Origin: Nitriliruptorales bacterium
GTDB lineage: Bacteria; Actinomycetota; Nitriliruptoria; Euzebyales; JAHELV01
Direction of reading: 5' to 3'
Assembly: GCA_024644015.1 (NCBI GenBank)
Contig: JAHELV010000039.1
Span: 1-37,988, forward strand
Length of the DNA: 37,988 nucleotides
Below are positions 1-8,718 of the stretch, piece after piece. The notes under the pieces are model-generated. The model saw only the letters and a list, made by a program, of their open reading frames with translations. It had not been told where the DNA came from and made no database searches. The stretch's first letter is position 1; each line of letters begins with the position of its first letter. The translations under genes were made by a program, and so were the position numbers.

Positions 1-77
1 CACCACAGGAGCCCGAACTTACGAACGGTTCGCGCAGTATCGCTGGCCGTATACAGATCAGTACGGCGATTGACGGC

Positions 78-105
78 TGCGCAACTTCTCGGTCCCGTTC
101 GTTTC
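78..105 (+). promoter_or_regulatory. Candidate ECF-type promoter of the sigma operon
   Basis: TGCGCAACTTCT (78-89) is followed after 10 bases by CGTTTC (100-105). The same 12-mer recurs at 1890-1901, followed after the same 10 bases by CGGTTC, upstream of the second channel gene. CAACTT resembles the AAC-containing -35 element of ECF promoters, and CG-TTC could be the -10. The box lies about 30 bases before the start of the sigma gene at 136, which would fit autoregulation. Functional assignment is inference. Confidence 0.5.
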
Positions 106-135
106 CTACGGTATGGAGAAGGAGATGTGCCATGC

Positions 136-678
136 ATGCGTCTGCAGGCGCTCGATGACGCGTACCTTGTATCTCGCGCAAAGGCGGGACGCCGTGACGC
201 GTTCGAAGAACTGGTGCGTCGGCACCGGGACATCGTCTACCGCGTCGCGCTGCGCATGCTCGGTGACCAGCGCGAGGCGGAGGACGCGGCGCAGGAGGCA
301 CTGCTCCAGGCCTGGCGCGCACTCGACGGCTTCCGCGGTGACAGCGCGTTCTCGACGTGGCTGTACCGCATCACGGTCAACCGTTGTCTCAACATGTTGC
401 GGGCTCGCCACGAGACCGAGCCCCTGATGACGGACCGCGCCAGCTCGGGGCCGTCGACCGAGGTCGTGGTCGAGTCCCGCCTGCAGCTCGACGACGTCAG
501 GCGCGCGATCCTGCGACTGACGCCGGAGCAACGAGCCCCGCTGGTGCTGCGAGAACTGGAGGGCTGCAGCTACGAAGAACTCGCCGAGATCCTCGACGTG
601 AGCGTGTCGGCGGTCAAGAGCCGCCTGCACCGCGCAAGGCTCGAACTGCTCAACGCGGTGCGGGAGTGGCAGCCGTGA
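136..678 (+). CDS. ECF-family RNA polymerase sigma factor
   Basis: This 180-residue protein has only the two domains of group 4 sigma factors. Sigma region 2 covers about residues 20-90, with the run AEDAAQEALLQAW and the -10-recognition helix around FSTWLYRITVNRCLN. Sigma region 4 covers about 120-175, with the helix-turn-helix CSYEELAEILDVSVSAVKSR. The ATG at 136 is preferred over an upstream in-frame TTG at 70 because GGAGAAGGAG (115-124) lies upstream at usable spacing, and the extra 22 residues do not look like family sequence. Its stop overlaps the next gene by GTGA, so translation is probably coupled to the zinc-finger protein, the usual place for an anti-sigma factor. A matching promoter motif upstream of this operon and of the gene at 1970 suggests the regulon includes the channels. 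The signal sensed is unknown. Confidence 0.93.
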   Translation: MRLQALDDAYLVSRAKAGRRDAFEELVRRHRDIVYRVALRMLGDQREAEDAAQEALLQAWRALDGFRGDSAFSTWLYRITVNRCLNMLRARHETEPLMTDRASSGPSTEVVVESRLQLDDVRRAILRLTPEQRAPLVLRELEGCSYEELAEILDVSVSAVKSRLHRARLELLNAVREWQP

Positions 679-1013
679 CCGGCCCATGGCCCAATCCGCT
701 GCCGTGCGGACAGTGGCTCGCGCCGCTGATCGCGCAGGTCGCCGACGGCGTCGAGGGTGACCTCGAGCACCAGGCGTCCTGCAAGTACTGCCAGCAGGCG
801 CTGGTTGCGCTGAACGGGCTGTGGGAGGCGACCGCCGCACTCGCGGCCGAGCAGGTCGTGGGCCCCGATTCGATCGACCGTGCCGTGTTGCGCAGCGTCC
901 AGCGTGAGATCTTCATCACGAAAGTGACCGAGTTGATCGGCGGTATCCTGCCTCGACTGTCCCGCGCCTTTCTGGTGTATTCGGGGCTTCTCGGCGGAGG
1001 CGAGCGGAGATGA
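675..1013 (+). CDS. Small zinc-finger anti-sigma factor candidate
   Basis: A 112-residue protein starting with GTG inside the stop of the sigma gene (GTGA overlap) and ending inside the start of the channel gene (ATGA overlap). Residues 32-39 carry H-x3-C-x2-C (His32, Cys36, Cys39), the core of the zinc anti-sigma (ZAS) motif, and Cys11 could be a fourth ligand. No clear membrane helix is visible, although the C-terminus (LIGGILPRLSRAFLVYSGLLGG) is hydrophobic and could associate with membrane. Gene order sigma, HxxxCxxC protein, membrane protein is typical of sigma/anti-sigma pairs. Similar small zinc-finger proteins also occur in actinobacterial Asp23/Gls24 operons, so it could instead be a structural stress protein. 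The anti-sigma role is inferred from motif and position. Confidence 0.7.
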   Translation: MTGPWPNPLPCGQWLAPLIAQVADGVEGDLEHQASCKYCQQALVALNGLWEATAALAAEQVVGPDSIDRAVLRSVQREIFITKVTELIGGILPRLSRAFLVYSGLLGGGERR

Positions 1014-1816
1014 CGATGGAACAACTTATCGCCGCCGGATCGGTGCTCGTCGTCGGCATCCTGATCGCGTTCCCGGTCAGGTGGCTGGCGGCCCGGTTGT
1101 TGGGACGTCTGCTACCCGACAACGAGCGCAGTGTCAGCCAGCAACAGAACGCGGCGCGCGGCGCCTTCGTGTTCACGATCGCGCTGGCAGTGGTCGCGGC
1201 GATCAGCGTGATCGCGCCGCTGCTGTTCGCCGACATTCCCGGCCGCGTGCTGGCGTTCCTGCCGAATCTGGTCGTTGCCGTGGTCATGCTGTGGTTGGGT
1301 GCCGTCGCTGCGAACCTGGTCGAGCAGATCGTCGGTGCCACCTTCGACCGGATGGGCCTGCCGAACGCCCAGGCCTTCGCGAAGGTGCTGTACTGGACCA
1401 TCCTCGGCCTGGCGATCGTGCTCGCGGCCGGGCAGTTGGGCATCGAGACCGCCGCGCTGCAGGGGCTGGTGCTCGTCGTGCTGATCGTCGTGGGCGCGGC
1501 CGGAGCGCTGGCAGTCGGCTTCGGAGGCCGGCGGCTGGCCGACACCGTCATCGCCGGCCGCTACGTCGAGGATCGGTTCGCCAGTGGCGACCGCATCGCG
1601 GTCGACGAGTACGAGGGCGTCATCATCGACATCGGCCTGGCCAGCATCGCGGTGCAACTGGACGACGGCGACACCGTCGAGATCCCGCACGGCTATCTGC
1701 TGGCGCGGCCGGTCACCTTGCGGCGACCCGCGGACACCAGCACACCGCACGACCAGGCGGGTCCGGACGCAGCGCGCTTTGAGACGCCACCCGAGAGCGG
1801 ACCGACCGAGGCCTGA
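1010..1816 (+). CDS. MscS-like mechanosensitive channel lacking the C-terminal vestibule domain
   Basis: 268 residues. Hydrophobic segments lie near residues 5-27, 52-72, 80-105, 122-142 and 148-172. They are followed by the MscS pore-end and beta (Sm-like) signature: a glycine-rich pore helix, then RFASGDRIAVDEYEGVI and DTVEIPHGYLL at about 190-232. Channels of this family open under membrane tension and release solutes during hypo-osmotic shock. After the beta domain only about 30 polar residues remain, so the alpha/beta vestibule domain of E. coli MscS is missing. The ATG overlaps the stop of the anti-sigma candidate (ATGA), placing the channel in the sigma operon. That arrangement suggests envelope or osmotic stress as the signal. 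Gating is not provable from sequence. Confidence 0.85.
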   Translation: MTMEQLIAAGSVLVVGILIAFPVRWLAARLLGRLLPDNERSVSQQQNAARGAFVFTIALAVVAAISVIAPLLFADIPGRVLAFLPNLVVAVVMLWLGAVAANLVEQIVGATFDRMGLPNAQAFAKVLYWTILGLAIVLAAGQLGIETAALQGLVLVVLIVVGAAGALAVGFGGRRLADTVIAGRYVEDRFASGDRIAVDEYEGVIIDIGLASIAVQLDDGDTVEIPHGYLLARPVTLRRPADTSTPHDQAGPDAARFETPPESGPTEA

Positions 1817-1889
1817 GCGACGCGGCTACGCCACGCGCGCAATTCACCACCTGACAACAGCTTGAACCCCTCCGTCTTTGTGCGCCAGT

Positions 1890-1917
1890 TGCGCAACTTC
1901 TGCCCGTGCGTCGGTTC
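1890..1917 (+). promoter_or_regulatory. Second copy of the candidate ECF promoter motif
   Basis: TGCGCAACTTCT (1890-1901), a 10-base spacer, then CGGTTC (1912-1917). This matches the motif upstream of the sigma operon with identical spacing. It lies about 50 bases before the GTG at 1970 and would give the second channel gene its own promoter under the same sigma factor. GTTGCGCAAC (1888-1897) is also a perfect 10-bp palindrome, so a repressor site is an alternative reading. Confidence 0.5.
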
Positions 1918-1969
1918 AGATCTGATACAGCGTCGACAATCTCCGACGCGGGGCAGACAAGGAGCACCC

Positions 1970-2947
1970 GTGACCACGCTCGCGCAGACCGATGTCAGCC
2001 AGCCCATCGAACAGGGGCTCGCGAGAGTCGTCGAGTTCGTTCCCAAGGCGTTCGCGTTCGTCGCGATCCTCCTGATCGGGTGGATCGTCGCCCGTCTGCT
2101 GCGGCGCCTGGTCGCTGGAGTGCTCGAACGTATCGGCTTCGATCGGGCCGCCGAGCACGGCGGTGTCAAGGACGCGCTCGCTCGGACCGGCTACGACGCC
2201 AGCGAGATCCTCGCCAAGCTCGTGTTCTACGCCGTCATGCTGTTCACGCTGCAGATGGCGTTCGGGGTCTTCGGGCCGAACCCGATCTCGGCGCTGCTGT
2301 TCGGCATCATCGCGTTCCTGCCCAAGGTCTTCGTCGCGATCGTGATCCTCGTACTGGCTGCGGCGATCGCCACAGTGGTGCGCGACCTGATCGGCGCGAC
2401 GATCGGGTCGCTGTCGTACGGCACGATGCTGGCCAACGCGGCCGCGGCGGTCATCGTCGCGATCGGCGTGTTCGCTGCGCTGGACCAGATCGAGATCGCG
2501 CCGACGGTGGTCAACGGTGTGTTCTACGCCCTGCTCGGTGTCGTCGCCGGCGTGACGATCGTTGCCGTCGGCGGAGGCGGCATCCAGCCGATGCGCCAGC
2601 GCTGGGAGCAGGCGCTTGCCCGAGTGGAGGAGGAATCGAGCCGGCTCCGCGACGAGGCCGAGTCGACTACGAGCCAGGACGTTGCGCAGCCGGTGCAGCA
2701 GGACGCCGATGCGGTGGATGGCGCGGACGACGAGGACGACACGACGGCTGAGCTGCCGACCATCGCGCCAGGCGGCGCGCAGGCGACGACTGCCCGCGGT
2801 CCATCCGCGCCAGCTGCCTCGGCTGCCGCCAGCGGAGACCAGCCTTCGGCGGCGAGTCTGCGCGAGCAGCTCGAGGACGCCGGCTGGCCGACGCTCGAGG
2901 GCACCGGCTGGCCGCCGTCGGACGACGACGGCGACCGCGCCGGGTAG
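1970..2947 (+). CDS. Mechanosensitive-channel-like membrane protein with TM-helix repeats (CmpX type)
   Basis: 325 residues. The GTG at 1970 is chosen because AAGGAG (1959-1964) sits five bases upstream; an in-frame TTG at 1862 would lie upstream of the promoter motif. The protein has paired conserved membrane helices of the TM_helix type found in CmpX-like and MscS-related proteins: roughly residues 22-45, 80-100, 112-140, 152-172 and 185-205. GIGSLSYG-like and IIGFLPK-like features are visible (IIAFLPKVF, IGSLSYGTML). It has no MscS beta domain. The C-terminal third is a charged coiled-coil-like stretch, then an Ala/Asp/Glu-rich low-complexity tail ending with two GW-P repeats (AGWPTLEGTGWPP). 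With the neighbouring channel it may respond to osmotic or envelope stress. Whether it conducts ions on its own is uncertain. Confidence 0.8.
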   Translation: MTTLAQTDVSQPIEQGLARVVEFVPKAFAFVAILLIGWIVARLLRRLVAGVLERIGFDRAAEHGGVKDALARTGYDASEILAKLVFYAVMLFTLQMAFGVFGPNPISALLFGIIAFLPKVFVAIVILVLAAAIATVVRDLIGATIGSLSYGTMLANAAAAVIVAIGVFAALDQIEIAPTVVNGVFYALLGVVAGVTIVAVGGGGIQPMRQRWEQALARVEEESSRLRDEAESTTSQDVAQPVQQDADAVDGADDEDDTTAELPTIAPGGAQATTARGPSAPAASAAASGDQPSAASLREQLEDAGWPTLEGTGWPPSDDDGDRAG

Positions 2948-3182
2948 GCCGGGCGCGGCCGGACCGCAGCGCGCGGCGCGGCATGACCTGCACAGCGCGT
3001 CGACATCGCGCGCAGCGTCGGTCACCTGTACGCTGACGGCGACCTGCTGCCGCCCGGCCTGCCGCCCGCGGGCTGGTCGGCGGGTGGCGACAGGGCGCTC
3101 GTGGCGTGTTCACAGTGGTGCGTGGACCGACCCGATGGGGGCAAGTCTGAACCAGACCGGCTGCCGGCCGAAGGACACCAGG

Positions 3183-3734
3183 ATGGCTCGCGCGCTCATC
3201 GTCGTCGACGTGCAGAACGGGTTCCTACGCGAGGGCAACCTCGCCAGCGACCGGTGCCTGGCCGTGTTGCCCGCGGTCCGCGAGGAGGTCGAACGCGCGC
3301 TCGACGCCGGCGAACGCGTGTTCTTCACCGCCGACACCCACGAGCCCGACGACAGGGAGTTCGAGGTGTTCCCGGAGCACTGTGTGCGGGGGACCCACGA
3401 AGCGGAGCTCGTGGACGAGTTGCGCGCCTACCTCGACCGTGAGGAGTGTCACCTGATCGCCAAGCGCAGGTACTCGGCACTGTTCGAGACCGAGCTCGAG
3501 GGCCTGCTGCACCGTTTTTCGATCGACCAGGTGCGCATCTGCGGGGTGTGCACCGACATCTGCGTGCAGCACACGACCGCCGACCTGCGCAACCGCGACA
3601 TCGCCGTGACGGTCGTCGCCGACGCGACCGCCACGTTCGACGCACCCGGCCACGCCGCCGGCGACGTCCAGCAGTTCTCGCTGGCGCACATGGAAGGCAT
3701 CCTCGGCGCGAGCATCGAACGGAGCGGGACGTGA
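3183..3734 (+). CDS. Isochorismatase/nicotinamidase-like cysteine hydrolase
   Basis: 183 residues, normal length for the family. The catalytic triad is visible: Asp9 in VVDVQNGF, Lys94 in IAKRRYSAL, and Cys127 in GVCTDICVQHT. Asp51 and His53 (TADTHEPDD) and His66 (PEHCVRGT) match the metal-ligand region and the HC-GT motif of nicotinamidases, so hydrolysis of nicotinamide to nicotinate is a reasonable specific guess. Related enzymes act on other amides or on isochorismate. The ATG at 3183 gives the canonical N-terminus right before the first beta strand. The proline dehydrogenase gene starts 13 bases downstream, so the two are probably co-transcribed. The 235 bases upstream hold no recognisable gene. 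Confidence 0.88.
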   Translation: MARALIVVDVQNGFLREGNLASDRCLAVLPAVREEVERALDAGERVFFTADTHEPDDREFEVFPEHCVRGTHEAELVDELRAYLDREECHLIAKRRYSALFETELEGLLHRFSIDQVRICGVCTDICVQHTTADLRNRDIAVTVVADATATFDAPGHAAGDVQQFSLAHMEGILGASIERSGT

Positions 3735-3747
3735 GTGGACGGCGCCG

Positions 3748-4668
3748 ATGAGCCTGCTCCGGCGGGCGCTGATCGCGGCGAGTGAGAGCGCGCAGCTCGA
3801 GCGGCAGGTGACGACCCGGACGATCAGCCGCAGGATCGCCCAGCGGTTCATCGCGGGTGAAACGCTTGACGATGGCATCGCGGCGGTCCGCGCGGTCGCG
3901 GCCCGGGGCTGTACGGCGACGCTGGACTTCCTGGGCGAGGCGGTCATCGGGCCCGACGATGCCCGCGCCGCGCAGGAGGCGATCCTCAAGGCGTGCGCGC
4001 GCATCGAGGCCGAAGCACTGCCGTCGGGCATCTCGGTCAAGCCGACGCAGATGGGATTGACCTTCGATCCCGCGCTGGCGTTCGACCTGATCCGTCAGAT
4101 CGCCGCCGAGGCGCAGCGGTTCGGCGGCCACGTCAACATCGACATGGAGGGCTCGGAGGTCACCGAAGCCACCGTGGCGTTGTGTGAACGACTCCGGGCG
4201 GCGGGCCACGACAACGTCGGCTGCGCACTGCAGTCCTACCTGCGGCGCACGCACGCCGACATCGAGCGCCTGACCGCGACCGGCGCCAGCCTGCGACTGA
4301 TCAAGGGCGCCTACGACGAGCCGCCGTCCGTCGCCTACCAGAACTCCGCCGACGTCGATACGAGCTTCGAGCGCAGCATGAACTGGCTCCTGGCGAACGG
4401 CACATATCCGAGGATCGCGACGCACGACGACCGCCTGATCGACAAGGCGAAACGCACGGCGATCCGCCTGGGGCGTTCACCACAGGACTTCGAGTTCCAG
4501 ATGCTCCACGGCGTGCGTACCGCGCTGCAGGATGCGCTCGTCGCAGGGGGCTGGCGGATGCGCATCTACATCCCGTTCGGCGTCCAGTGGTATCCGTATT
4601 TCATGCGTCGCATCGCGGAGCGGCCCGCCAACCTGGTGTTCTTCCTCCGGGCGTTGGCGGGATCGTAG
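3748..4668 (+). CDS. Proline dehydrogenase (monofunctional, FAD-dependent)
   Basis: 306 residues, the usual size of the single-domain actinobacterial enzyme. It oxidises L-proline to pyrroline-5-carboxylate, passing electrons through FAD to the membrane quinone pool. Family blocks appear in order: SVKPTQMGL, IDMEGSEVT, LQSYLRRTHAD, LRLIKGAYDEPP, IATHDDRLI, FEFQMLHGVR and the C-terminal IPFGVQWYPYFMRRIAERP. The last holds the paired arginines that contact the substrate carboxylate. No second domain for P5C dehydrogenation is attached. The aldehyde dehydrogenase at 7222-8718 could in principle supply such an activity, but it looks more like the betaine-aldehyde/amino-aldehyde group. A proline-forming enzyme (proC) lies directly downstream. 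Confidence 0.95.
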   Translation: MSLLRRALIAASESAQLERQVTTRTISRRIAQRFIAGETLDDGIAAVRAVAARGCTATLDFLGEAVIGPDDARAAQEAILKACARIEAEALPSGISVKPTQMGLTFDPALAFDLIRQIAAEAQRFGGHVNIDMEGSEVTEATVALCERLRAAGHDNVGCALQSYLRRTHADIERLTATGASLRLIKGAYDEPPSVAYQNSADVDTSFERSMNWLLANGTYPRIATHDDRLIDKAKRTAIRLGRSPQDFEFQMLHGVRTALQDALVAGGWRMRIYIPFGVQWYPYFMRRIAERPANLVFFLRALAGS

Positions 4669-4763
4669 CCACGACCAGTGCCGTCCGGCCCGAACGGTTG
4701 CGGCGTCCGTCCATGGGCGCACCGGCGAGGGGCAGCGCCGCAGCGCCGCACGAGCCTTTTGAC

Positions 4764-4769
4764 TAAGCT
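4764..4769 (+). promoter_or_regulatory. Candidate -10 box for near-leaderless proC mRNA
   Basis: TAAGCT ends eight bases before the proC ATG, with no Shine-Dalgarno in between. A transcript starting about seven bases after this box would be leaderless or nearly so. Similar TA-G-T boxes precede several other starts here (hemB, the small gene at 5651, DUF72). No convincing -35 is seen. Confidence 0.35.
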
Positions 4770-4777
4770 CCCAGGTC

Positions 4778-5599
4778 ATGACCGCCAAACACACCACACC
4801 CCGCCTGGCGATCCTGGGCGCCGGTCGCATGGGCGAGGCACTGCTGTCGGGCCTGCTGCGCTCCGGTGCCTGGACGACCGGGCAGATCGTGTGCACCACG
4901 CGCAGCCAGCGGCGTGCCGACCTGATCGCCGGACGCCACGACGTCACGGTCCACACCGACTCGGCCGAGGCCGCCGCGGGTGCCGACATCGTGCTCATCG
5001 CCGTCAAGCCGCAGAGCATCGCGACCCTGCTCGCCGAGGTCGCGCCGAAGCTCCACCGCGGGCAGACCGTGATCTCGGTCGCCGCCGGCGTCGGCACGGC
5101 GTCGATCGAGGCGGCGCTGCTCGAGGACATCCCGGTCGTCCGGGTCATGTCCAACGTCCCGGTGCAGGTCGACGAGGCCATGAGCGTGCTTGCCGCGGGC
5201 GTGCATGCCGGACCGGCCGACGTCGAGGTCGCGCGCACCATCCTCGGCCATGTCGGCAAGGTGATCGAGCTGGGCGAGGAGCAGCTCGACGCCGTCACAG
5301 GGCTGTCGGGCTCTGGTCCCGCCTACCTGTTCCTGCTCGCCGAGACGATGATCGAGGCCGGCATCCTGCTCGGGCTGCAACGGGATGTCGCCACCGAGCT
5401 GATCGCGCAGACCATGGTGGGCAGCGCCAAGATGCTGCGGGACTCGGGTCGACATCCCGTGGAGCTGCGCGAGTCGGTCACGTCGCCCGGTGGCACCACG
5501 ATCGCCGCGATCCGCGTCCTCGAGCAGGAGCGTGTGCGGGCGGCGTTCATCAATGCGATCGAGGCCGCGACACTGCGGTCGCGTGAGCTCGGTCGCTGA
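4778..5599 (+). CDS. proC: Pyrroline-5-carboxylate reductase
   Basis: 273 residues. It catalyses the last step of proline synthesis, reduction of pyrroline-5-carboxylate with NAD(P)H. The N-terminal Rossmann motif LAILGAGRMGEALLSGL is at residues 9-25. The central IVLIAVKPQ and RVMSNVPVQV segments follow. The C-terminal dimer domain contains the ProC signature ALSGSGPAYLF-type run (GLSGSGPAYLFLL) and LRESVTSPGGTTIAAI. The start at 4778 is clear from the Rossmann fold. No ribosome-binding site is visible and a -10-like TAAGCT lies just upstream, so the message is probably leaderless. It neighbours proline dehydrogenase, so biosynthesis and breakdown of the same osmolyte amino acid are side by side. 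Confidence 0.97.
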   Translation: MTAKHTTPRLAILGAGRMGEALLSGLLRSGAWTTGQIVCTTRSQRRADLIAGRHDVTVHTDSAEAAAGADIVLIAVKPQSIATLLAEVAPKLHRGQTVISVAAGVGTASIEAALLEDIPVVRVMSNVPVQVDEAMSVLAAGVHAGPADVEVARTILGHVGKVIELGEEQLDAVTGLSGSGPAYLFLLAETMIEAGILLGLQRDVATELIAQTMVGSAKMLRDSGRHPVELRESVTSPGGTTIAAIRVLEQERVRAAFINAIEAATLRSRELGR

Positions 5600-7071: not shown

Positions 7072-7217
7072 GGGTGGCGCTCCACGCCGCGCGGGGTCGC
7101 CACGATCCGCTCGACACGTGTGTCTGTGACCGCAGCCTCGTCCACCGTGATGCGCAGGGCGAAAGGCAGATCCAGCCGCAGCTCGCAGCCGCCGACGGTG
7201 ACCCGTACGATTGGCAT
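7068..7217 (-). CDS. 49-residue gene between aldehyde and alcohol dehydrogenases
   Basis: Reading the minus strand from the ATG at 7217 gives 49 codons ending in TGA at 7070-7068. It begins MPIVRVTVGGCELRLDLPFA and ends VERIVATPRGVERHP. The start lies four bases after the stop of the aldehyde dehydrogenase gene, and the stop overlaps the GTG of the alcohol dehydrogenase gene (GTGA). It therefore fills the gap exactly and would couple translation of its neighbours. Alternating hydrophobic and polar residues suggest beta strands. It has one cysteine, no signal peptide and no membrane helix. I do not recognise the family. A short coupling peptide with no function of its own is the main alternative. 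Confidence 0.6.
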   Translation of the reverse strand: MPIVRVTVGGCELRLDLPFALRITVDEAAVTDTRVERIVATPRGVERHP

Positions 7218-7221
7218 GCGA

Positions 7222-8718
7222 TCAGCGCCCCAGTCCGATCCAGGTCGTCTTGAGCTGGGTCAGATGATCGAACGCGTGCAGCGACCGGTCGCGCCCCCCG
7301 AAGCCAGACGCCTTGTAGCCGCCGAACGGGGTTGCCAGGTCGCTGACTTCGAACGTGTTGACCCACACCGTGCCGGCGCGCAGCTCTCGAGCCACGCGGT
7401 GGGCGCGCGTGACGTCGCTCGTCCACACGGCTGCGGCCAGCCCGTAGTCGGTGTCGTTGCCGAGCGCGATGGCGCGGTCAGGCGAGCCGTCGAACCGGTG
7501 CACGGTGAGGACCGGACCGAAGATCTCGTCGCGGGCGATGCGCATCCGGTTGTCGACCCCGGCGAAGACCGTCGGCTCGACGTAGTAGCCGCCGGCAACC
7601 GGCTGCGCGGTGTGGCCGCCAAGTGCGACCGTCGCCTCGCGTTGCCCGAGATCCAGATAGCCGCTGACCCGCTCATGCTGCTCGGCGCTGACGATTGCGC
7701 CCATCGTGGTCTGCGGGTCCAGCGGGTCACCCGGCTGCAGTGCGGCGGCCGTCTCGGCGATGCCGGCCAGCAGCCTGTCCTCGATCGAGGCCTCGACCAC
7801 GAGCCGCGAGCCGGCATGGCAGGTCTGGCCTGCGTTGTAGAAGATGCCCCAGGCGATTGCGTTCGCGGCCGCTTCGGGGTCCGGGCAGTCGGCGAACACG
7901 ACCTGTGGGCTCTTGCCGCCCAGCTCCAGCGCCACCTCCTTGAGGTTGGATTCGGCCGCGTACATCAGGAACCGCCGGCCGACAGCGGTCGAACCGGTGA
8001 AGGCGATCGCGTCGACCAGAGGATGGCGACCCAGCGGCTCGCCCGCCGACGGGCCGTCGCCCGGCACGACGTTGAGTACGCCGTCGGGCAGTCCGGCCTC
8101 TGCGGCCAGTCCGCCGAGCAGCAGCGCCGACAGTGGCGACTGCTCGGCCGGCTTGAGGACACACGTGTTGCCGGCGGCCAGCGCGGGCCCGATCTTCCAC
8201 GCCGCCAGGATCAGCGGGTAGTTCCAGGGCACCACGGTGCCGACGACACCGATCGGCTCGCGGCGCACCAGGGCCAGCGCGTCGGGACCCGTCGGCGCGA
8301 CCTCGTCGTAGATCTTGTCGACCGCCTCGGCGTACCAGCGGATCGTGTTGGCGCACCCGGGCACGTCAGTGCGCAGCGCATCGGCGATTGGCTTACCGAC
8401 GTCGACCGATTCGAGCAGTGCGAGCTCGTCGCGGTGCGCCTCGATCGCATCGGCGAACCGCAGCAGCGCCCGCTTGCGCGATCGTGGCGACCGGTCCCGC
8501 CAGCGACCGTCGTCGAACGCCTGGCGCGCCGCGGCGACGGCCGCATCCACGTCAGCCGCGTCGCAGTTGGGCACCTCTGCCACTGTCGTGCCGTCTCGTG
8601 GACTGGCATCGACGAACGTCACGTCGCTGCGCGGTTGCTGGTAGTCGCCGTCGATGAACGGCCGGACCTCCGGGTTCAGCGTTTCGGCGCGCTCCACCCA
8701 GCTCGTCGCTGCTGCCAT
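7222..8718 (-). CDS. NAD(P)-dependent aldehyde dehydrogenase, betaine-aldehyde/amino-aldehyde type
   Basis: 498 residues, full family length. Catalytic residues are all present: Asn166 (VVPWNYPLILAAWK), Lys189 (CVLKPAEQSP), Glu265 (VALELGGKSP) and nucleophile Cys300 (YNAGQTCHAGSRL). EIFGPVLTVHRFD and a C-terminal GGYKASGFGGRD block also match. The closest characterised families oxidise betaine aldehyde, gamma-aminobutyraldehyde or related amino aldehydes. The gene follows five genes for a quaternary-amine ABC transporter on the same strand, supporting betaine aldehyde as substrate. P5C or a general aldehyde cannot be excluded. GGCGGAG lies upstream of the ATG as a ribosome-binding site. The 80-base gap to the upstream gene contains TACGCT on the minus strand (8784-8779), a weak internal -10 candidate. 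Confidence 0.9.
   Translation of the reverse strand: MAAATSWVERAETLNPEVRPFIDGDYQQPRSDVTFVDASPRDGTTVAEVPNCDAADVDAAVAAARQAFDDGRWRDRSPRSRKRALLRFADAIEAHRDELALLESVDVGKPIADALRTDVPGCANTIRWYAEAVDKIYDEVAPTGPDALALVRREPIGVVGTVVPWNYPLILAAWKIGPALAAGNTCVLKPAEQSPLSALLLGGLAAEAGLPDGVLNVVPGDGPSAGEPLGRHPLVDAIAFTGSTAVGRRFLMYAAESNLKEVALELGGKSPQVVFADCPDPEAAANAIAWGIFYNAGQTCHAGSRLVVEASIEDRLLAGIAETAAALQPGDPLDPQTTMGAIVSAEQHERVSGYLDLGQREATVALGGHTAQPVAGGYYVEPTVFAGVDNRMRIARDEIFGPVLTVHRFDGSPDRAIALGNDTDYGLAAAVWTSDVTRAHRVARELRAGTVWVNTFEVSDLATPFGGYKASGFGGRDRSLHAFDHLTQLKTTWIGLGR

What the first reader, a model, noticed from the sequence alone, without database searches (positions are those of the whole stretch)
78..1917. Shared ECF-type promoter motif links the sigma operon to a second channel gene
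TGCGCAACTTCT occurs at 78-89 and 1890-1901, each followed after exactly 10 bases by CG(T/G)TTC. One copy precedes the ECF sigma/anti-sigma/MscS-like operon, the other a CmpX-like channel gene. I see no third copy in the window. This predicts an autoregulated sigma factor whose core regulon is two membrane channels, a stress circuit I do not know as described. Motif match is seen directly; the promoter role is inference.
Basis: partly seen in the sequence, partly recalled or inferred. Interest (0 to 1): 0.7.

Follow-up and report, generated by a model that had tools for sequence, protein, structure and literature searches.

The report
Stress sigma factor controlling two membrane proteins
Two identical promoter-like DNA signals in an actinobacterial genome tie a stress sigma factor to its own operon, which ends in a mechanosensitive-channel gene, and to a neighbouring CmpX-like membrane protein gene; the same pairing recurs in distant relatives, so it is probably a small conserved membrane-stress circuit of a partly known kind.

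Summary
TGCGCAACTTCT-N10-CG(T/G)TTC occurs at 78-105 and 1890-1917 and nowhere else exactly in the 4.0 Mb genome. Re-read as GCAACTT-N13-G(T/G)TTC it has the AAC-N18-TC geometry of ECF promoters. One copy lies 31 bp upstream of an ECF sigma / soluble zinc-type anti-sigma / short MscS-like operon; the other lies 52 bp upstream of a CmpX-like gene. Comparative tests support a promoter role. A distant actinobacterium (G077) carries the motif before its orthologous operon and before an unlinked CmpX gene. A Euzebya-like genome (G012) has its own variant, GAAACTT-N13-GNGTC, at exactly two genomic sites: the sigma operon and CmpX. G050 carries it before a CmpX gene divergent from the sigma gene. Sixteen CmpX genes from same-class genomes without the operon, and this genome's second CmpX gene, lack it. 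The operon recurs across the phylum, but many other members lack this promoter. 'Two channels' is only half shown: the MscS-like protein has an MscS fold without the vestibule; the CmpX-like protein has no MscS beta domain and no fold match. Precedent: Pseudomonas aeruginosa SigX drives cfrX-cmpX. I judge this a new variant of a known kind; no expression data exist.

The parts
81..105 (+). predicted ECF promoter P1: -35 GCAACTT (81-87), 13-nt spacer, -10 region GTTTC (101-105); start site expected near 112
   Evidence: Exact shared motif. Same motif 11/12 upstream of the orthologous sigma gene in G077. Start-site position is inference.
114..123 (+). probable ribosome-binding site GGAGAAGGAG of the sigma gene
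   Evidence: Read from the sequence; inference.
136..678 (+). ECF sigma factor (sigma2 and sigma4 domains), 180 aa, ATG at 136
   Evidence: Pfam Sigma70_r2 3.9e-22 and Sigma70_r4_2 1.5e-19; NCBIfam sigma70-ECF above its cut-off.
675..1013 (+). putative soluble zinc-type anti-sigma factor, 112 aa, overlapping the sigma stop codon; Cys11, His32, Cys36, Cys39 (HxxxCxxC) invariant in relatives
   Evidence: Alignment A3. No transmembrane segment, maximum 19-residue hydropathy 1.16. No Pfam hit.
1010..1816 (+). short MscS-like protein, 268 aa: transmembrane helices plus MscS beta domain, no C-terminal vestibule
   Evidence: PF00924 and PF05552; PDB profile matches to MscS; AlphaFold model matches MscS structures, Foldseek E 1.2e-7.
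1887..1898 (+). perfect palindrome AGTTGCGCAACT overlapping the -35 element of P2 (possible operator; not conserved at P1 or in relatives)
   Evidence: relatives.
1893..1917 (+). predicted ECF promoter P2: -35 GCAACTT (1893-1899), 13-nt spacer, -10 region GGTTC (1913-1917); start site expected near 1924
   Evidence: Exact shared motif. Same core upstream of CmpX genes in G077, G050 and G012.
1970..2947 (+). CmpX-like membrane protein, 325 aa (GTG start), two PF05552 conserved TM helix repeats, disordered C-terminal tail, no MscS beta domain
   Evidence: PF05552 3.1e-19, 2 stretches; all-helical model; no PDB match by sequence or fold.

Best explanation
The two motif copies are promoters of the ECF sigma factor encoded at 136-678. 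The factor is held inactive by the co-encoded soluble zinc-type anti-sigma factor. When a stress (envelope, osmotic or thiol/zinc; identity unknown) releases it, it transcribes its own operon from P1 (sigma, anti-sigma, MscS-like) and the CmpX-like gene from P2. The result is positive feedback together with coordinated supply of two membrane-tension-type proteins. Shown: the motif, its genome-wide uniqueness, its recurrence at both gene types in relatives, and conservation of the operon. Inferred: promoter activity, dependence on this sigma factor, the signal, and channel activity.
For: Only two exact copies genome-wide, one before each gene. AAC-N18-TC geometry equals that of E. coli sigma-E-type promoters (established knowledge), and ECF factors typically use AAC -35 boxes, a cognate anti-sigma and autoregulation (PMC8103513). 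The window-derived motif, tested out of sample, scores 11/12 before the G077 sigma operon (11 of 10,000 shuffles as good), 10/12 before G050 cmpX (32 of 10,000), 10/12 before G077 cmpX (103 of 10,000), and 10/12 before the G006 and G012 sigma genes (8 and 9 of 1,000). G012's own form GAAACTT-N13-GNGTC occurs at just two places in 6.4 Mb, its sigma operon and its distant cmpX; shuffle test 10 of 10,000. No copy before 16 cmpX genes from same-class genomes lacking the operon, nor before the second cmpX of this genome. No sigma-70-type promoter or terminator separates the genes. Sigma/anti-sigma/MscS-like gene order is conserved in over 20 genomes. cmpX is divergent from the sigma gene in G050 and in a Solirubrobacterales MAG.
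Against: Sigma orthologues in G008, G017, G020, G021 and G050, and the Rubrobacter-like operons, lack the motif upstream, so the promoter is not universal. The cmpX genes of G020 also lack it. The looser pattern is no commoner than its reversed control, so identification depends on position. The general form G[ACG]AAC-N15-GNKTC was fitted after seeing relatives. The genome has about 16 other sigma-family matches, and one of those could be the one that uses these promoters.
Confidence: 0.78

Rival explanations
1. The shared element is an operator for a repressor or activator that binds the palindrome AGTTGCGCAACT, rather than the sigma factor's own promoter.
For: The copy at 1887-1898 is a perfect 12-bp palindrome and TGCGCA is shared by both copies.
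Against: The copy at 75-86 has two mismatches to the palindrome. In G077, G012 and G050 the bases 5' of the AAC box are not conserved, while AAC, the spacing and the TC element are. No regulator gene other than the sigma/anti-sigma pair is adjacent.
Confidence: 0.07
2. Both sites are ECF promoters but are used by another ECF sigma factor of this genome; the local sigma gene is a target in a cascade rather than autoregulated.
For: The genome has 17 sigma-family matches to the query, this gene included, and ECF motifs are similar between groups. Sigma orthologues in some relatives lack the motif.
Against: Motif form tracks the sigma gene: the window and G077 (sigma 67% identical) share GCAAC-N15-GTTTC, and the more divergent G012 and G006 pair shifts to GAAAC-N15-GGGTC, matching G012 cmpX. 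CmpX genes in genomes without this sigma operon lack the motif.
Confidence: 0.12
3. The identical 12-mers are a chance or duplication relic without function.
For: The two copies are only 1.8 kb apart in a GC-rich sequence.
Against: Flanks are not duplicated. Zero shuffles give even one match. The element recurs at the same two gene types in other lineages on unlinked contigs or at distant sites.
Confidence: 0.03

Closest known systems
Pseudomonas aeruginosa SigX and its cfrX-cmpX target (PMC7641640, PMC10965496)
   Same: An ECF envelope-stress sigma factor controls a gene for a CmpX protein (described there as MscS-like) next to the sigma gene.
   Different: Different phylum. There no co-encoded anti-sigma is described in the parts of these papers that I read. 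Here an anti-sigma and a short MscS-like gene are in the sigma operon, and cmpX has its own matching promoter. Orthology of the sigma factors was not tested.
ECF sigma factor with soluble zinc anti-sigma domain (class I ASD, Hx3Cx2C), such as SigR-RsrA of Streptomyces coelicolor
   Same: Two-domain ECF factor with an overlapping gene for a cytoplasmic anti-sigma carrying Cys, His, Cys, Cys candidate zinc ligands; autoregulated promoter inferred.
   Different: The targets found here are membrane proteins, not thiol-redox genes. Redox response and zinc binding are untested. Rubrobacter-like relatives of the operon lack the zinc ligands.
E. coli sigma-E-type promoters (GGAACTT-N15/16-TCTGA; from general knowledge)
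   Same: Same distance between the AAC and TC elements.
   Different: Flanking bases differ: GCAACTT and G(T/G)TTC here.

Membership tests
Autoregulated ECF sigma system | Sigma protein with only sigma2 and sigma4 domains | tested here: met
   Pfam regions 2 and 4 only; NCBIfam sigma70-ECF 115 bits against a cut-off of 43.
Autoregulated ECF sigma system | Co-encoded anti-sigma factor | tested here: inconclusive
   Overlapping 112-aa gene with invariant C-H-C-C ligands in six aligned sequences, but no Pfam or NCBIfam model hit and no binding test.
Autoregulated ECF sigma system | AAC-type -35 and correctly spaced -10 in front of its own operon | tested here: met
   GCAACTT-N13-GTTTC 31 bp upstream of ATG; same in G077.
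Autoregulated ECF sigma system | Transcription depends on the sigma factor itself | not testable with these tools
   Needs transcript mapping or in vitro transcription.
Pseudomonas SigX-CmpX type circuit | ECF factor controls a cmpX gene | tested here: inconclusive
   Shared promoter element at sigma operon and cmpX in the window, G077 and G012; cmpX only in G050. Expression not measured.
Pseudomonas SigX-CmpX type circuit | Sigma factor orthologous to SigX | not tested
   No phylogeny with Pseudomonas SigX was built. The window gene is below the NCBIfam cut-off for a model named SigX (88 against 194 bits), but that model may not represent the Pseudomonas protein.
MscS mechanosensitive channel | Pore helix plus MscS beta domain | tested here: met
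   The 1010-1816 product: PF00924 above cut-off, MscS profile hits in PDB, Foldseek E 1.2e-7.
MscS mechanosensitive channel | C-terminal alpha/beta vestibule | tested here: not met
   The 1010-1816 product ends after the beta domain.
MscS mechanosensitive channel | MscS beta domain in the CmpX-like protein (1970-2947) | tested here: not met
   PF05552 only; all-helical model; no structural match.

The most novel reading that the evidence does not exclude
The MscS-like and CmpX-like proteins are the sensor as well as the output. Because the anti-sigma is soluble in nearly all the operons where it could be read, the conserved membrane protein in the operon would couple membrane tension to release of the sigma factor, giving a mechanosensitive sigma circuit that is widespread in Actinomycetota.
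Probability: 0.12. Interest if true: 0.8.

Novelty: new variant of a known kind. Interest (0 to 1): 0.45.

Why it matters
ECF factors are abundant in Actinomycetota and many have no known signal or targets. Here comparative evidence names a promoter, a small predicted regulon and a conserved operon linking an ECF factor to mechanosensitive-family membrane proteins. This makes the question of how these bacteria transcriptionally regulate membrane-tension proteins directly testable, and parallels the SigX-CmpX link of Pseudomonas in a distant phylum.

Tried and rejected
My first relaxed pattern required TCNANS and therefore missed the window copies; it was replaced by GVAACYT-N13-GNKTC. A palindromic operator was considered and rejected because the palindrome is not conserved. 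A sigma-70 promoter was considered, but none was found in 1-3300. Other genome hits of the looser motif in this genome lie mostly inside probable coding frames, so no third regulon member is proposed. The related-loci scan with the sigma alignment mostly returned general ECF factors; only L110 and L117 were informative. The CmpX fold search gave nothing significant. A wider search of the order of G077 found only 3 genomes. The 2021 ECF re-classification paper is not in the library, so no ECF group number was assigned. Literature searches for an ECF/anti-sigma/MscS operon in actinobacteria found no description.

Full report
Observation. The two copies of TGCGCAACTTCT-N10-CG(T/G)TTC are at 78-105 and 1890-1917 on the + strand. 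No dinucleotide shuffle of the window contains even one. The window is the whole of contig C74 of a 4.0 Mb assembly, in which these are the only exact matches. The core GCAACTT-N13-GKTTC also occurs only there, and the looser GVAACYT-N13-GNKTC gives 10 hits against 10 for its reversed control.

Gene context. ECF sigma gene 136-678. Overlapping 112-aa gene 675-1013 with Cys11, His32, Cys36 and Cys39 invariant among six aligned sequences, no transmembrane segment and no Pfam hit; I read it as a soluble zinc-type anti-sigma factor. MscS-like gene 1010-1816. CmpX-like gene 1970-2947. No sigma-70-like promoter occurs in 1-3300 and no terminator-like site lies between the MscS-like and CmpX-like genes, so read-through into cmpX is also possible.

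Promoter reading. AAC (83-85, 1895-1897) is followed after 18 bases by TC. That equals the geometry of E. coli sigma-E promoters (established knowledge) and fits the general ECF rule of an AAC -35 box, a co-encoded anti-sigma and autoregulation (PMC8103513). It places the start about 24 and 46 nt before the start codons (inference).

Independent test in relatives. The closest operon outside the class, in G077 (sigma 67%, anti-sigma 53%, MscS-like 53% identical), has GCAACCTTCTGGGCTTCGAGGTTTC about 51 bp upstream, and its cmpX on another contig has GGAACTTTCCGGGCATCGTCGTGTC. G012, which I take to be Euzebya from its genome structure (inference), has GAAACTT-N13-GGGTC before the sigma operon and GAAACTT-N13-GAGTC before a cmpX 1.8 Mb away. 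In its 25 genome-wide hits of the loose pattern these two are the only ones of the form GAAACTT-N13-GNGTC. In G050 cmpX is divergent from the sigma gene and carries GCAACTC-N13-GTGTC. Scored with the motif taken from the window alone, 200-nt upstream regions gave 11/12 for the G077 sigma operon, and 10/12 for G077 cmpX, G050 cmpX and the G006 and G012 sigma genes, with 0.1 to 1.2% of shuffles as good. G012 cmpX is not significant by the window motif (109 of 1,000) but is by G012's own sigma-promoter motif (10 of 10,000). The G077 cmpX site is not significant against the G077 sigma-promoter motif alone (791 of 10,000).

Controls. None of 16 cmpX genes from same-class genomes without this operon has the general motif, nor does the second cmpX of the window genome; 4 of about 8 cmpX genes from operon-bearing genomes have it. 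Fisher p is about 0.007 with these numbers, with grouping chosen after inspection. Background frequency is 0.007 per 200 nt.

Limits. The motif is absent before the sigma gene in G008, G017, G020, G021 and G050 and in the Rubrobacter-like family (name inferred), where sigma-A-like -10 boxes (TGTTATCTT or TATACT) and a GGTTAC box are seen in many loci instead. So the gene set is older or broader than this promoter.

The conserved operon. The short MscS-like family was found in 45 of 396 genomes sampled from the phylum. Most of the fetched loci have an ECF sigma gene and a small gene just upstream; in more than 20 of these the small gene reads as a 96-125 aa protein without a transmembrane segment. 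In two loci (L073, L238) the automatic pick was a wrong-frame reading; for L073 the correct frame is a zinc-type anti-sigma. In a Solirubrobacterales MAG cmpX is divergent from a related sigma gene, with an MscS-like match downstream. In G017 and Modestobacter the same sigma/anti-sigma pair occurs without the MscS-like gene; in G017 an Asp23 envelope-type domain lies in the anti-sigma reading frame.

What the proteins are. The MscS-like product has PF00924 and PF05552, matches MscS in PDB by profile and by fold, and ends after the beta domain. The CmpX-like product has two PF05552 repeats, an all-helical model of pTM 0.41 and no match by sequence or fold. Calling it a channel is therefore inference from the family name.

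Comparison. In P. aeruginosa, SigX-dependent transcription of cfrX-cmpX is established (PMC7641640; PMC10965496). The present case works like that circuit in linking an ECF factor to CmpX, but adds an anti-sigma gene and a short MscS-like gene in the operon and lies in another phylum. My searches found no paper describing this actinobacterial operon. Soluble zinc anti-sigmas are often redox sensors (PMC7406223), so the signal need not be mechanical.

Verdict. The promoter reading and the link are probably right (0.78). The novelty is that of a new variant of a known kind.

Noticed in passing
G012:C1:1669249, 3022823, 4627902 (L277, L284, L294) and G006:C7:158251, C17:112055 (L096, L103): Related sites GCAACTTCG-N-GGTCCAA or CGTCCAA, several just upstream of predicted small membrane proteins and two of them conserved between the two genomes; either a larger regulon of the same sigma factor there or that of another ECF factor.
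   Followed up: partly
L221-L244 (about 20 Rubrobacter-like genomes): The same sigma/soluble anti-sigma/MscS-like operon, but preceded in many loci by TGTTATCTT or TATACT boxes and a GGTTAC element instead of the ECF motif; its anti-sigma lacks the zinc ligands.
   Followed up: partly
L070 (G017) 2776-3929 and L110 (Modestobacter): Close relatives of the sigma/zinc anti-sigma pair without the MscS-like gene; in G017 the anti-sigma reading frame continues into an Asp23 envelope-related domain.
   Followed up: partly
L071 (G050), between the divergent sigma and cmpX genes near 7105-7275: Perfect 11-bp inverted repeat CACTCCGTGCG...CGCACGGAGTG, a possible additional operator.
   Followed up: no
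window 1887-1898: Perfect palindrome AGTTGCGCAACT overlapping the -35 element of the cmpX promoter only.
   Followed up: yes
window 3183-5599: Isochorismatase-like hydrolase, proline dehydrogenase and pyrroline-5-carboxylate reductase genes follow in the same direction; proline can be an osmolyte, so a functional link to membrane-tension proteins is conceivable but untested.
   Followed up: no
genomes G001-G003 (same genus as the window): The sigma/MscS-like operon is missing from the three sampled congeners, so its distribution is patchy.
   Followed up: partly
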